A DNA stretch of 47,041 nucleotides, taken from contig JAAHGR010000030.1 in assembly GCA_010672425.1 (NCBI GenBank), positions 1-47,041 of the forward strand. The letters run 5' to 3'. Of this stretch, positions 7,195-11,610 are shown piece by piece. A program made the position numbers and the translations under genes. This DNA is from Symploca sp. SIO2E6. Lineage in GTDB: Bacteria > Cyanobacteriota > Cyanobacteriia > Cyanobacteriales > Coleofasciculaceae. The first letter of the stretch is position 1, and the number at the start of each line of letters is the position of its first letter. The notes beneath the pieces are model-generated. The model did no database searches, had not been told where the DNA came from, and saw nothing but the letters and a program-made list of their open reading frames with translations.

Positions 7195-7422
7195 ATGCCC
7201 ATATTAGATGTGACCGTTGAGCAAGTAGTTACCTTAGTACAACAATTACCATTAGAGGGAAAGAAAGCAGTATTTGAGGTACTCCAAAAAGAATTACTTG
7301 ATCAGGAAAATCCTTGGCTCAAATTAGCTGGTAAATACAAAGACGATCCACAGTTTGATGAAATGTTGGCTTATATTGAATCTGAGCGACGAGAAATGAA
7401 TGCTCAAGAGGAAGCCAAATGA
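7195..7422 (+). CDS. Small antitoxin of a VapBC-type module
   Basis: A 75-residue protein with no named domain that I recognise. The N-terminal half (TVEQVVTLVQQLPLEGKKAV) has the look of a dimerising helix-turn-helix or ribbon-helix antitoxin start; the C-terminal half is acidic and probably disordered (ESERREMNAQEEAK), as expected for a toxin-neutralising tail. Its TGA overlaps the ATG of the PIN-domain toxin (ATGA at 7419-7422), the usual translationally coupled antitoxin-toxin arrangement. Function is inferred from this context. The pair is enclosed by two copies of a 0.9 kb repeat block. Confidence 0.72.
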   Translation: MPILDVTVEQVVTLVQQLPLEGKKAVFEVLQKELLDQENPWLKLAGKYKDDPQFDEMLAYIESERREMNAQEEAK

Positions 7423-7838
7423 ATTTGTGGATTCTCGATACCGAGCATTTGTCGCTTTTGCAGCGGGGACATCTGAAGATCCGCCAACGTCTTACTATGA
7501 TAAAACCACAGGAAATAGCTATTAATATTATTTCTGCTGAAGAACAAATCAGAGGAAGACTGGGTATTATTAGGCGAGCAAATTCCTCTAATGAGCTTGT
7601 TTTGGCTTACCGGCGTTTGAAAGAGTTATTAGACGAGCTGGAAACCATCAATGTGCTTGATTTTATTCCGGAAGCTTCTCTGATTTATGGTGATTTAATG
7701 CAGCAAAAAATTCGTATTGGAACCAGAGATTTAAGAATTGCAGCAATTGTTCTTGCTGTTCAAGGAACTTTAGTAACTCGCAATCACAGGGATTTTGAGA
7801 GAGTCCCAGGTTTGAAAGTTGAAGATTGGACGGTATAA
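7419..7838 (+). CDS. vapC: PIN-domain ribonuclease toxin (VapC family)
   Basis: A 139-residue PIN-domain protein of usual VapC size. The expected acidic active-site residues are present: Asp7 (WILDTEHL), Glu41 or Glu42 (ISAEEQI), Asp104 (GTRDLRIAA) and Asp125 (RNHRDFE); together they would bind Mg2+ for cleavage of tRNA or other RNA. It overlaps the upstream antitoxin by four bases and appears intact. The 3' repeat block begins eight bases after the stop codon. Confidence 0.88.
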   Translation: MNLWILDTEHLSLLQRGHLKIRQRLTMIKPQEIAINIISAEEQIRGRLGIIRRANSSNELVLAYRRLKELLDELETINVLDFIPEASLIYGDLMQQKIRIGTRDLRIAAIVLAVQGTLVTRNHRDFERVPGLKVEDWTV

Positions 7839-9159: not shown

Positions 9160-9540
9160 ATGATTTCAGCACAGACGTACCAACCAGCAATCATTCGGAC
9201 AGAACGTGGATTAACGATCTCAGGTACACGTATCACTCTTTACGATGTGATGGATTACCTAAAAGCTCAATATCCACAAAAGCTAATCTGTGAAAAACTC
9301 GGTCTTAGTCATAATCAAATTAGTTCAGCTCTAGCCTACATCGAAACTCATAGTGTTGAGTTTGAAGCAGAATACCAAGAATGCCTGCAAACAGCAGTGG
9401 AAATTCGGCAATATTGGGAAGAGCGAAATCGAGAACGATTTGCCAAGATTGCAGCAATGCCGCCAAAAAAGGGTCAGGAGGCTCTCCGAGCCAAGCTTCA
9501 AGCATGGAAAATGAGAATTGAAGCTCAGGCCGAGGAATGA
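9160..9540 (+). CDS. DUF433-family antitoxin
   Basis: A 126-residue protein. Residues about 10-65 have the DUF433 pattern ([23 protein letters not shown], then IAxxLGLS-like [19 protein letters not shown]), a winged-helix-like DNA-binding fold found in VapB45-type antitoxins. The C-terminal half is helical and charged, likely the toxin-binding part. Its TGA overlaps the ATG of the PIN-like gene (ATGA, 9537-9540), the standard coupled arrangement. A TTCCCAA array fills the upstream region and no promoter could be recognised there. Confidence 0.82.
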
Positions 9541-9929
9541 ACTTTCTGATCGACTATAATTTAACTGGTGATGCTGTTTTGCTCTGGGGAACACTTGCAG
9601 CTGAAGGATGGCTGGAACTATTGCCCATTCGCTTATTCACATTTCAGGACGCTGACTTACCAATGGATAGTAGCGATTACACTGTTTGGCACTTTGCTCA
9701 GAGCAACCAAATGATCCTAATTACTGCTAACCGAAATATGAAAGGAGAAAATTCTCTAGAGCAAACCATTCGTGAGGACAATACACCAACTTCGTTACCA
9801 ATTCTGACAATCGCAAATCCCGATAGATTTGATGAGAGTAGTTATCGACAAAGATGTGCTACCCGATTGATTGAAATCTTATTTGATTTGGAAAACTACC
9901 TGGGAGTTGGTCGAATTTATATCCCATAA
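9537..9929 (+). CDS. PIN-like toxin partner of the DUF433 protein (DUF5615/VapC45-like)
   Basis: A 130-residue protein starting [14 protein letters not shown], which fits the first Asp motif of the PIN-like (DUF5615/Mut7-C) clan. A second motif region is SSDYTVWHFAQSNQMILITANRNM, equivalent to the usual D..hhxxA......hhT.D strand-helix-strand, although Asn replaces Asp in TANR. Pairing with a DUF433 gene by a 4-base overlap supports the toxin assignment. Ribonuclease activity is inferred from the family. The gene appears complete; repeat DNA follows. Confidence 0.72.
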   Translation: MNFLIDYNLTGDAVLLWGTLAAEGWLELLPIRLFTFQDADLPMDSSDYTVWHFAQSNQMILITANRNMKGENSLEQTIREDNTPTSLPILTIANPDRFDESSYRQRCATRLIEILFDLENYLGVGRIYIP

Positions 9930-10320
9930 ATTCAGAATCTTGTAGGCTTGGAATTAATGCGATTAGCGCAAGCTGGTGCCGTAGGCAATCGCTTATTTGT
10001 TTTTGCTACAAAAAAAGCGCGATCGCCGTAGGGGCGGGTTTAGGGATATGATAACCACATCAGCGACAAGCTTGATACAAAACCCGCCCAATCGATAACC
10101 TTGCGGATTAGCGAGATCGCCTCTGATATCAAGTCCGGATAATTAATTATAATTCCCTTCGACCTTGCAACCTTCTTTCTTCCCTCCTGCCTCGGAGCCT
10201 CGGAGCCTCCTGCCTCGTTTCCACCAAAGTGTAAGTATTCAACCGGACATGATATGACTTATCACGAGAAGTCCTAAAACTCACCGTTCGCCCATTTGAC
10301 TTGATCAGCAAGCCCTAACC
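9930..10320. repeat. Intergenic repeats with half element of the GGGCGGGTTTAGG family
   Basis: Contains an AAGCTGGTGCCGTAGGCAAT segment also present in the 6.2-9.0 kb blocks, then a left half-element (CGTAGGGGCGGGTTTAGG ... AAACCCGCCC, 10027-10089), then low-complexity CCTCGGAGC repeats near 10190-10220. No gene is seen. Confidence 0.7.
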
Positions 10321-10324
10321 AGTG

Positions 10325-10640
10325 CAAGAATATAAATTTACCCCTGCCGAATATCCGACGACAGGGGTGATAAGCTTTTAAGAGCTTGTAGTACTTGGCC
10401 ACCAACACATTTAAAGAAAAGTTCAGGCTGGAGATCGTTTGTTCTGCCACTAAACTACCCCTGCAAGTTATTGGAGCAGGGGACGGGATTTGAACCCGTG
10501 ACTAACGACTATTGACTTTTCTGTTCGATTTGGCAGTAAGTATGGGTTACTAAGCTTAGAGTAATAACTTGAACTTGATGCGCTTGCCTCTACTTTTGGG
10601 CTACCTCCGGTTAAGTCCGGAGGATAGGTCTTGCACCTAC
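10325..10640 (-). ncRNA. Structured RNA region carrying a permuted tRNA
   Basis: Read on the - strand directly downstream of the unknown gene ending at 10685. In transcript order it has: a 5-bp hairpin TAGGT/ACCTA (10625-10639), a 7-bp perfect hairpin CCTCCGG-loop-CCGGAGG (10604-10623), a weaker TTACT/AGTAA hairpin (about 10546-10565), one arm of an 8-bp helix (10515-10522), the permuted tRNA (10435-10508), the other arm (10415-10422) and a 10-bp hairpin with one G.U pair (10340-10368). The AGGTGCAAGAC segment resembles the P7 region of cyanobacterial tRNA-Leu group I introns, but I could not find a complete group I core. Boundaries are approximate. Confidence 0.5.
10435..10508 (-). tRNA. Circularly permuted tRNA-like gene, probably tRNA-Gly(UCC)
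   Basis: On the - strand the 3' half comes first: anticodon 3' strand TCGTT (10508-10504), variable AGTC, T arm ACGGG-TTCAAAT-CCCGT (10499-10483), acceptor CCCCTGC (10482-10476), T73 and encoded CCA (10474-10472). After a 7-base spacer ATAACTT comes the 5' half: acceptor GCAGGGG (10464-10458), TA, D arm GTTT-AGTGGCA-GAAC, A26, anticodon 5' strand AACGA (10439-10435), then TCTCCAG. Acceptor (7/7) and anticodon (5/5) stems pair perfectly between halves. With TCTCCAG as loop, the anticodon is UCC; G1-C72, C2-G71 and U73 agree with glycine identity. C at position 33 instead of U is odd, so the exact loop junction is uncertain. No normal-order copy of either half lies nearby. Confidence 0.65.
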
Positions 10641-10684
10641 ACTGACAGCGTTGATTAGTTTGAGTTTAAAATTAAGCTTGTACT

Positions 10685-11610
10685 CTACCCTTGAGTATAG
10701 CTTGTTCCAGCTAGATATGCAGCGATGCGATCGCCCGCATCTTGTTGGGTTACTTGCATCGTATTCGCCTCTTCCCGAGCAAACTTCACCGCTTCCCTCA
10801 ATTTTTCCACACGAGCTAGCATTTGATTGACTTCAGTTGCGGGGAAGGCTCCGGAATACTTAATGGTTGTCCAGTATCCCACGATAATATCTTCGTAGAA
10901 CACCTCAACCTGGGCAGGATGTTTGTCGGTTGCCTCTGCCTTAACATGGTTACGAGGAACTTTTTTCGTGCGAGTGGTTTGTGTAGGAGTTGTCGCCCAA
11001 GCATCCTGGCTAATATCCTTGTGCCATTCTTCCGCCGGATCTAAAGTCGGCAGCTTTTGGATAAAAGTGTGGATATCAACCAGTTTTTTTTCCAGGAATA
11101 ACAAAAAAGTCGTAGGAGCCTGAGGAACAATCACTTGTCCGTCCACAACAATATCTGCTCTGGCTTCACAATTAGCATAATCCTTGGTTGCGGTGATATT
11201 CAATAATTTAGTGATGGCACTAAAAACCTCTGCAACCACCTGTTCACCTTGAACCTGAACTCTAGTTGACTCACTAGGCAGTTGATCTCCTTCTTCATCT
11301 TTGGGACGATAAGAACGAGAAATTCCAGAAAGGGGGGCTGGTTTCTGGAGGGTTTGATAAGCGTCAAACAATTGAAGATTGAAGATTGAAGATTTTAGAT
11401 TTACCCCATAAATAAATTTAGGGGCTTGAGGATTTAAAGATTGAAGATTGTAGATTTATTCCATAAATAAATTTAGGGGCTTGTGACCGTTTTATTATAA
11501 AATCTAAAATCTAAAATCTAAAATCTAAAATTTCTCTGGTCAGTAATCACCCGGTGTGATTTACTCGACACATCTTTTTCGATCGCAATGATTTGATTTA
11601 ATTTAGCCAT
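10685..11610 (-). pseudogene. Conserved protein of unknown function, interrupted by a repeat insertion
   Basis: The N-terminus lies at 11610: ATG preceded by AAGGA, reading MAKLNQIIAIEKDVSSKS and ending after 30 codons at a TAG (11518-11520) inside repeats. The rest (228 residues from a TTG at 11371) begins FDAYQTLQKPAPLSGIS and continues to 10685. I recall a family with the continuous pattern of both parts, also seen in actinobacteria and phages, but cannot name a function. The C-terminal part has KKVPRNHVKAEATDKHPAQV and VEVFYEDIIVGYWTTIKYSG. If only the 228-residue part is translated, it lacks about 25 residues and a good start. The gene precedes the permuted-tRNA region on the same strand, so both may share a transcript. 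Confidence 0.7.
11372..11533. repeat. Repeat insertion inside the unknown gene
   Basis: About 160 bp composed of TTGAAGA heptamers, two copies of a CCATAAATAAATTTAGGGG palindromic segment, and AAAATCT heptamers. It separates the N-terminal 25 codons from the remainder of the gene and introduces stop codons. Confidence 0.75.

What the first reader, a model, noticed from the sequence alone, without database searches (positions are those of the whole stretch)
10435..10508. Circularly permuted tRNA gene (3' half before 5' half) in a bacterium
On the - strand a complete tRNA 3' half with T arm, acceptor strand and encoded CCA is followed, after only 7 bases (ATAACTT), by a matching 5' half with acceptor and D arm. 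The 7-bp acceptor stem (GCAGGGG/CCCCTGC) and the 5-bp anticodon stem (AACGA/TCGTT) are perfectly complementary between the halves, which chance does not explain. Sizes add to a normal 74-nt tRNA; glycine identity (U73, G1-C72, C2-G71, anticodon UCC) fits. Permuted tRNA genes are known in red algae, other unicellular algae and archaea, matured through a circular intermediate; I know of no established bacterial tRNA gene of this order. How a bacterium without the archaeal/eukaryal splicing endonuclease would join the ends is the open question. C33 and the junction position remain uncertain.
Basis: partly seen in the sequence, partly recalled or inferred. Interest (0 to 1): 0.93.

Follow-up and report, generated by a model that had tools for sequence, protein, structure and literature searches.

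The report
Twin tRNA-mimic RNA beside DUF7873
A stretch of cyanobacterial DNA that reads like a tRNA gene with its halves swapped is part of a conserved, predicted non-coding RNA found next to one uncharacterised protein family in many bacteria and phages, and this RNA likely works by imitating tRNA with two tRNA-shaped heads rather than by making a tRNA.

Summary
In detail: at 10508-10435 (-) a tRNA-like 3' half precedes its matching 5' half. It is not a tRNA gene. The genome has an ordinary tRNA-Gly(UCC). The element is the second of two permuted tRNA-like modules in a predicted RNA of about 350 nt that starts on the stop codon of a DUF7873 (PF25283) gene; module 1 (10640-10586) was missed. 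Such modules lie within 600 nt behind DUF7873 in 140 of 160 bacterial and viral loci, against 0 of 480 shuffles. Acceptor, T and D arms covary. The flanks outside the 'anticodon stem' also pair and covary with each other: a basal stem, no anticodon loop. That is the architecture of YrlA, the tRNA-mimicking bacterial Y RNA. Yet the match is far below Rfam's YrlA cut-off (27.3 against 69 bits), no Ro60 gene was found, and over 291 genomes the RNA goes with DUF7873 (30 of 32), not Ro60. No Rfam family reaches threshold here; no held paper contains 'DUF7873'. Expression, protein binding and function are inferred.

The parts
10688..11371 (-). DUF7873 (PF25283) coding frame, 228 aa from a TTG; stop codon TAG at 10687-10685 overlaps the start of the RNA
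   Evidence: Pfam E 1.4e-97; 6787 homologs at E<=1e-5. The frame is the larger part of an interrupted gene
11539..11610 (-). detached N-terminal 24 codons of the DUF7873 gene, in another frame and about 170 bp from the rest
   Evidence: AT-rich 7-nt tandem repeats between the two parts
10334..10686 (-). predicted non-coding RNA with two permuted tRNA-like modules; both ends are inferred
   Evidence: model R1 hits 10558-10685 (104.7 bits; R1 includes this sequence) and 10411-10549 (36.7 bits); conserved downstream of DUF7873
10681..10686 (-). P1 closing stem, 5' strand AGAGTA
   Evidence: pairs with 10563-10558; C-G/U-A and A-U/G-C changes across 22 sequences
10558..10563 (-). P1 closing stem, 3' strand TACTCT
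10624..10640 (-). module 1 T arm (GTAGG TGCAAGA CCTAT); its loop departs from the usual TTCRA
   Evidence: alignment A2
10604..10623 (-). module 1 acceptor: 3' strand CCTCCGG, 6-nt loop ACTTAA, 5' strand CCGGAGG
   Evidence: all 7 pairs vary on both sides in relatives
10586..10603 (-). module 1 U8 and D arm (TAGCCCAAAAGTAGAGGC)
10515..10521 (-). module 2 basal stem, 5' strand GAAAAGT
   Evidence: pairs with 10422-10416; covarying stem at this place in A3
10504..10508 (-). module 2 'anticodon stem' 3' half TCGTT
10483..10499 (-). module 2 T arm ACGGG TTCAAAT CCCGT
10458..10482 (-). module 2 acceptor: 3' strand CCCCTGC, 11-nt loop TCCAATAACTT, 5' strand GCAGGGG
   Evidence: all 7 pairs vary on both sides in 29 sequences, 99.5% of cells paired
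10441..10457 (-). module 2 U8 and D arm TAGTTTAGTGGCAGAAC
10435..10439 (-). module 2 'anticodon stem' 5' half AACGA
10416..10422 (-). module 2 basal stem, 3' strand ACTTTTC
   Evidence: A3 consensus
10334..10369 (-). terminator-like hairpin with a weak T tract; not called by the consensus scan
   Evidence: sequence; by eye a GC hairpin occupies the same place in relatives; the scan found none

Best explanation
The element is one of two tRNA-like modules, each with its 3' half before its 5' half, in a conserved and predicted non-coding RNA encoded directly downstream of a DUF7873 protein gene, and it is likely a Y-RNA-like tRNA mimic rather than a tRNA gene. Shown by sequence and covariation: each module keeps the acceptor, T and D arms of tRNA with the acceptor end closed by a short loop, and the place of the anticodon arm is taken by a long basal stem. 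Inferred: the RNA is transcribed and is bound, probably at its stems and its 6-nt-periodic linker, by the DUF7873 protein. The two tRNA-shaped heads would then bind enzymes that recognise the tRNA elbow and acceptor stem, acting as scaffold or decoy, as reported for YrlA with tRNA-modifying enzymes and PNPase. The frequent place among phage tRNA genes suggests a role in protecting or handling tRNA under attack. In this genome the protein gene is interrupted, so this copy may be decaying.
For: Module downstream of DUF7873 within 900 nt in 76 of 80 bacterial and 68 of 80 viral loci; within 600 nt in 140 of 160, against 0 of 480 shuffles, 0 of 160 antisense, 2 upstream, 1 upstream antisense and 4 far downstream. 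262 modules picked by T loop and D arm alone, in 167 of 182 loci, have 87% Watson-Crick acceptor cells against 50% when halves are shuffled between modules. In 79 two-module loci halves pair within a module (94%, 90%), not across modules (54%, 56%). A2: 96.7% of cells paired, covariation 0.517 against 0.161, 0 of 500 shuffles, slid controls 41-55%. A3: 94.9% paired, covariation 0.738 against 0.219, 0 of 500 shuffles, slid controls 40-45%; all 14 basal-stem pairs outside the anticodon stem change on both sides. Best Rfam match is YrlA. 30 of 32 genomes with the RNA at 57 bits or more also have DUF7873, Fisher p 2.5e-28. Five phage and Ktedonobacteria loci not in the model score 73-107 bits. Ordinary tRNA-Gly(UCC) present.
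Against: No transcript, binding or function data. Under the strict pattern only 79 of 182 loci show two modules at the expected spacing; 76 show one and 15 none. 13 of 43 DUF7873 genomes have no RNA match at 57 bits or more; 6 of these 13 have a weaker one (39-47 bits) next to DUF7873. L035 and L045 show none by eye in 420 nt; L062, L124 and L133 have none by scanner or R1. Distant phage loci L273 and L274 reach only 25 and 20 bits. RNA matches of 64-107 bits without adjacent DUF7873 occur in G249, G252 and G215. The window's module 1 T loop is atypical and its DUF7873 gene is interrupted. DUF7873 has no trusted fold match that would suggest RNA binding; three relatives have pI about 6. The A3 structure was derived from A3, which favours it against slid controls.
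Confidence: 0.75

Rival explanations
1. A true circularly permuted tRNA-Gly(UCC) gene whose transcript is joined at the anticodon loop and opened at the acceptor end.
For: Exact 7-bp and 5-bp stems, sizes summing to a tRNA, TCC at the expected place; CCA-like TCCA in the acceptor loop.
Against: Ordinary tRNA-Gly(UCC) present. Flanks beyond the anticodon stem form covarying helices with each other. Two modules per RNA; NCCA in only 38 of 158 modules of 79 two-module loci. A 2014 review tabulates permuted tRNAs for algae and Thermofilum, none for bacteria (PMC4033280, passages).
Confidence: 0.04
2. A structured 3' UTR element of DUF7873 mRNA: DUF7873 binds the tRNA-like modules in its own transcript to regulate itself.
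For: The RNA starts on the DUF7873 stop codon here and within about 20 nt of it in L047-L050, and is followed by a hairpin; tight linkage.
Against: 12 of 20 non-redundant loci have a TANNNT hexamer shortly before the RNA start against 15% in mononucleotide shuffles, suggesting its own promoter, though the GC-rich Streptomyces starts lack it; RNA copies without DUF7873 beside them exist; Gordonia phage Keelan has a gene and a tRNA between the two. The consensus promoter scan found none in the window.
Confidence: 0.15
3. A natural permuted intron-exon gene: split group I or II intron halves flank the tRNA halves and splice them into a circle.
For: Order of halves fits; group I introns sit in cyanobacterial tRNAs (PMC4033280, passages) and permuted group II introns exist in bacteria (PMC8637638, title and start of abstract).
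Against: No group I or II intron family among the matches at E up to 10 in 9700-11300, though split halves could score low; the flanks form conserved basal stems instead.
Confidence: 0.01
4. Remnant of two tandem tRNA genes that lost their outer halves.
For: Tandem tRNAs also give the 3' half-5' half order, and weak model hits fall in a tRNA array.
Against: Each 3' half pairs with the following 5' half with compensatory changes over several phyla; scanner hits are rare elsewhere around the same genes.
Confidence: 0.02

Closest known systems
YrlA / bacterial Y RNAs (Rfam RF02553), partner Ro60/Rsr
   Same: tRNA-like domain with T, acceptor and D arms in permuted order on a long basal stem (Rfam consensus); encoded near its partner protein gene (PMC8394870 and PMC7790460, passages)
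   Different: Two modules in one RNA; far below the Rfam cut-off (27.3 against 69 bits); neighbour gene DUF7873, not Ro60; not linked to TROVE genes. The Ro60-side module in L218 matches R1 only in the tRNA-like core
Circularly permuted tRNA genes of algae and Thermofilum
   Same: 3' half precedes 5' half, halves complementary in acceptor and anticodon stems
   Different: No anticodon loop on joining, flanks pair as basal stem, two modules, ordinary tRNA also present
GOLLD and ROOL phage RNAs (recalled, from no call)
   Same: As recalled, large structured RNAs near phage tRNA genes
   Different: No Rfam family reaches threshold in the window; as recalled, larger and without permuted tRNA modules

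Membership tests
YrlA (RF02553) | Score at or above Rfam gathering cut-off 69 bits | tested here: not met
   27.3 bits in the window; 8 matches of 25.1-31.5 bits in 7 of 17 loci tested, one of the 7 being the window itself
YrlA (RF02553) | Permuted tRNA-like domain on a basal stem | tested here: met
   Consensus structure with covariation, A3 and A2
YrlA (RF02553) | Ro60/Rsr (TROVE) gene in the genome | tested here: not met
   No TROVE match in own genome, a draft 97% complete; RNA and TROVE not associated, 8 of 32 against 62 of 259 genomes, p 0.83
YrlA (RF02553) | Modified by tRNA enzymes (TruB, DusA) and bound by PNPase | not testable with these tools
   -
Circularly permuted tRNA gene | 3' half before 5' half with complementary stems | tested here: met
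Circularly permuted tRNA gene | Joining the halves closes an anticodon loop; flanks are discarded | tested here: not met
   Flanks pair with each other and covary
Circularly permuted tRNA gene | Needed source of that tRNA | tested here: not met
   tRNA-Gly(UCC) at G000:C402
Circularly permuted tRNA gene | BHB motif and splicing endonuclease | not tested
   -
Permuted group I/II intron gene | Intron core in the flanks | tested here: inconclusive
   No intron family among matches at E up to 10, but split halves could be missed

The most novel reading that the evidence does not exclude
A new, widespread class of bacterial and phage ribonucleoprotein: the DUF7873 protein with an RNA bearing two circularly permuted tRNA heads, independent of Ro60, which decoys or recruits tRNA-acting enzymes (for example tRNA-cutting defence nucleases) and so guards the tRNA pool, in cyanobacteria, Streptomyces, Chloroflexota and large phages alike.
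Probability: 0.5. Interest if true: 0.88.

Novelty: new variant of a known kind. Interest (0 to 1): 0.78.

Why it matters
It turns an apparent bacterial permuted tRNA gene into a conserved RNA with two tRNA mimics and a likely protein partner that has thousands of relatives and no known function. If right, it widens tRNA mimicry by Y-like RNAs beyond Ro60, gives DUF7873 a testable role, and offers a reason why many large phages keep this pair among their tRNA genes. It also warns that searches for permuted tRNA genes will find such mimics.

Full report
Observation. ARAGORN calls no tRNA in the window. Rfam at its own thresholds reports nothing. In 9700-11300 at E up to 10 the best of four matches is YrlA, the Y-RNA-like RNA, at 10413-10521 (27.3 bits, E 0.0028, cut-off 69); its consensus has the same arm order and a terminal stem.

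Not a needed tRNA. The 58 tRNA matches listed in the genome (150 of 432 candidates were scored) were fetched and read by ARAGORN: an ordinary tRNA-Gly(UCC) is at C402:9643-9713 and a tRNA-Gly(CCC) on C1048; no tRNA-Gly(GCC) was seen.

The locus. The 228-aa frame just upstream (10688-11371) is DUF7873, PF25283, with 6787 homologs at E up to 1e-5. DNA similarity found the region in 4 of 20 family genomes, one being the window's own. In the three others a DUF7873 gene lies directly upstream and two permuted modules follow, 157-159 nt apart. The window also has two modules: the first, 10640-10586, has an exact 7-bp acceptor and a D arm but a T loop TGCAAGA.

Spread. PF25283 occurs in 43 of 291 genomes sampled from the order and 12 of 386 sampled over the phylum, the two samples overlapping. 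A permuted module lies within 900 nt after DUF7873 in 76 of 80 and 68 of 80. Within 600 nt it is 140 of 160, against 0 of 480 shuffles, 0 of 160 antisense, 2 upstream, 1 upstream antisense and 4 at 1.5 kb downstream (stretches under 300 nt skipped in the last three). The four bacterial misses are L058, L062, L124 and L133; model R1 finds L058 at 100 bits and not the other three. The 12 viral misses include short stretches. Of the 30 loci L021-L050, L035 and L045 show nothing by eye in the first 420 nt; a loose scan gave L035 one acceptor-like match without a D arm, and in several others (such as L021, L023, L028, L030) module 1 is hard to recognise by eye.

One or two modules. With a strict pattern of T loop and D arm, 167 of 182 loci have at least one module; 79 have two at 125-180 nt (15 of 22 cyanobacterial, 44 of 80 bacterial, 20 of 80 viral), and 76 show one. 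The window itself counts as one there, because of its odd T loop, so the pattern undercounts.

Covariation. With modules chosen by T loop and D arm only, acceptor cells are 87% Watson-Crick against 50% for shuffled halves, with several pair types at every position (262 modules in 167 of 182 loci). Halves pair within a module and not across the two modules. On 22 domain-1 sequences 96.7% of cells pair, 14 of 20 pairs have changes on both sides, and no shuffle of 500 reaches any of the five measures. On 29 module-2 sequences RNAalifold predicts 30 pairs. Counted on the same alignment, 94.9% of cells pair, 28 of 30 pairs change on both sides, the covariation score is 0.738 against 0.219, no shuffle of 500 reaches any measure, and slid versions pair in 40-45%. 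Fourteen of these pairs (columns 11-38 with 158-182) lie outside the anticodon stem; all 14 change on both sides, with 79-95% of cells paired by helix. This is the main argument against a tRNA: the flanks that a tRNA would discard are paired to each other. The structure was derived from the alignment, which favours it over slid versions, and many rows are phage and Streptomyces relatives, so cells are not independent events.

Linkage. Model R1 (domain 1; 142 positions) finds 32 of 291 genomes at 57 bits or more. 30 of these also have DUF7873 (Fisher p 2.5e-28), while TROVE (70 of 291 genomes) is not associated (8 of 32; p 0.83). Seven of these genomes gave a sequence to the model. Loci outside the model also score well: Arthrobacter phage Racecar 106.5, Ktedonobacter racemifer 100, a Ktedonobacterales genome 96.2, Pseudanabaena phage Pam2 83.9, Gordonia phage Keelan 73.5 bits; Rhizobium and Vibrio phages with distant DUF7873 only 25 and 20 bits. 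Copies without DUF7873 beside them exist in G249, G252 and on another contig of G215. 13 of 43 DUF7873 genomes have no RNA match at 57 bits or more; in six of them (G090, G118, G121, G134, G162, G268) a weaker match of 39-47 bits lies next to DUF7873, and several of the others hold only fragments of the gene. Weak R1 matches also fall in a tRNA array of the window's genome, so matches of 35-50 bits away from DUF7873 are not counted here.

Other anatomy. The 5' linker shows a 6-nt period of YTNANN: 2.56 hexamers in the best phase of 30 nt against 0.66 in shuffles, 25 non-redundant of 73 loci; the strand before the 3' side of P1 looks alike. A TANNNT hexamer precedes the RNA start in 12 of 20 non-redundant loci against 15% in shuffles. 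Viral loci lie among tRNA genes: 48 of 80 have at least one within about 4 kb (mean 4.4), bacterial loci 18 of 80 (mean 0.24); four of the five annotated phage records looked at show tRNA genes around (not Pam2).

The window's own copy. The conserved first 24 codons of DUF7873 are at 11610-11539 and the rest starts at 11368 in another frame, with about 170 bp of AT-rich, 7-nt-repeat DNA between. With the odd T loop of module 1, this copy may be decaying, though both acceptor stems are exact.

Mechanism. YrlA, by the passages read, has a basal stem that tethers Rsr, and a tRNA-like domain that is modified by DusA and TruB and binds PNPase (PMC8394870); its tRNA-like domain has been suggested as a possible competitive inhibitor of an anticodon nuclease (PMC7790460). 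By analogy the DUF7873 RNA likely presents two tRNA-shaped heads, held by DUF7873, to enzymes that read the elbow and acceptor stem. This is inference: no expression, binding or phenotype data were available. DUF7873's predicted model (mean pLDDT 84) resembles no solved fold that I trust.

Verdict. Real and conserved; not a tRNA gene; a Ro60-independent, doubled variant of the tRNA-mimicking Y-like RNAs, linked to an uncharacterised protein family.

Noticed in passing
window 11610-11330 (-): The DUF7873 gene is interrupted after codon 24 by about 170 bp of AT-rich DNA with 7-nt tandem repeats; the two parts are in different frames.
   Followed up: partly
L022-L050 and other loci, linker between P1 and module 1: The linker shows a 6-nt period of YTNANN, which may give 4-bp pairings spaced by 2-nt mismatches or a repeated protein site.
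   Followed up: partly
L137-L216, L270, L271, L273, L274: In phages the DUF7873-RNA pair often lies among tRNA genes (48 of 80 viral loci).
   Followed up: partly
L305 (G249), L306 (G252), L307 (G215): Matches of 64-107 bits to the RNA model without DUF7873 next to them.
   Followed up: partly
L024, L025, L033, L046: By eye, repeat-like insertions of roughly 75-145 nt sit in the loop between the two acceptor strands of a module, suggesting that this loop tolerates inserts.
   Followed up: no
G000:C673:11700-18800 (L269): A cluster of 21 predicted tRNAs, several low-scoring and one called tRNA-Pyl(cta), in the window's genome.
   Followed up: no
L020 (G000:C125:4493-4528): A 36-nt piece 86% like the linker between the two modules lies on another contig; R1 finds no copy there.
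   Followed up: partly
window 9160-9929 (+) and 7419-7838 (+): A DUF433/DUF5615 gene pair and a PIN-domain gene, of the kind seen in toxin-antitoxin modules (the toxin-antitoxin reading is recalled).
   Followed up: no
L218 (G150): A permuted tRNA-like module near a TROVE (Ro60-like) gene, probably a Ro60-linked Y RNA; it matches R1 only in the tRNA-like core. It was the only one of 15 TROVE loci scanned with such a module within about 1.5 kb.
   Followed up: partly
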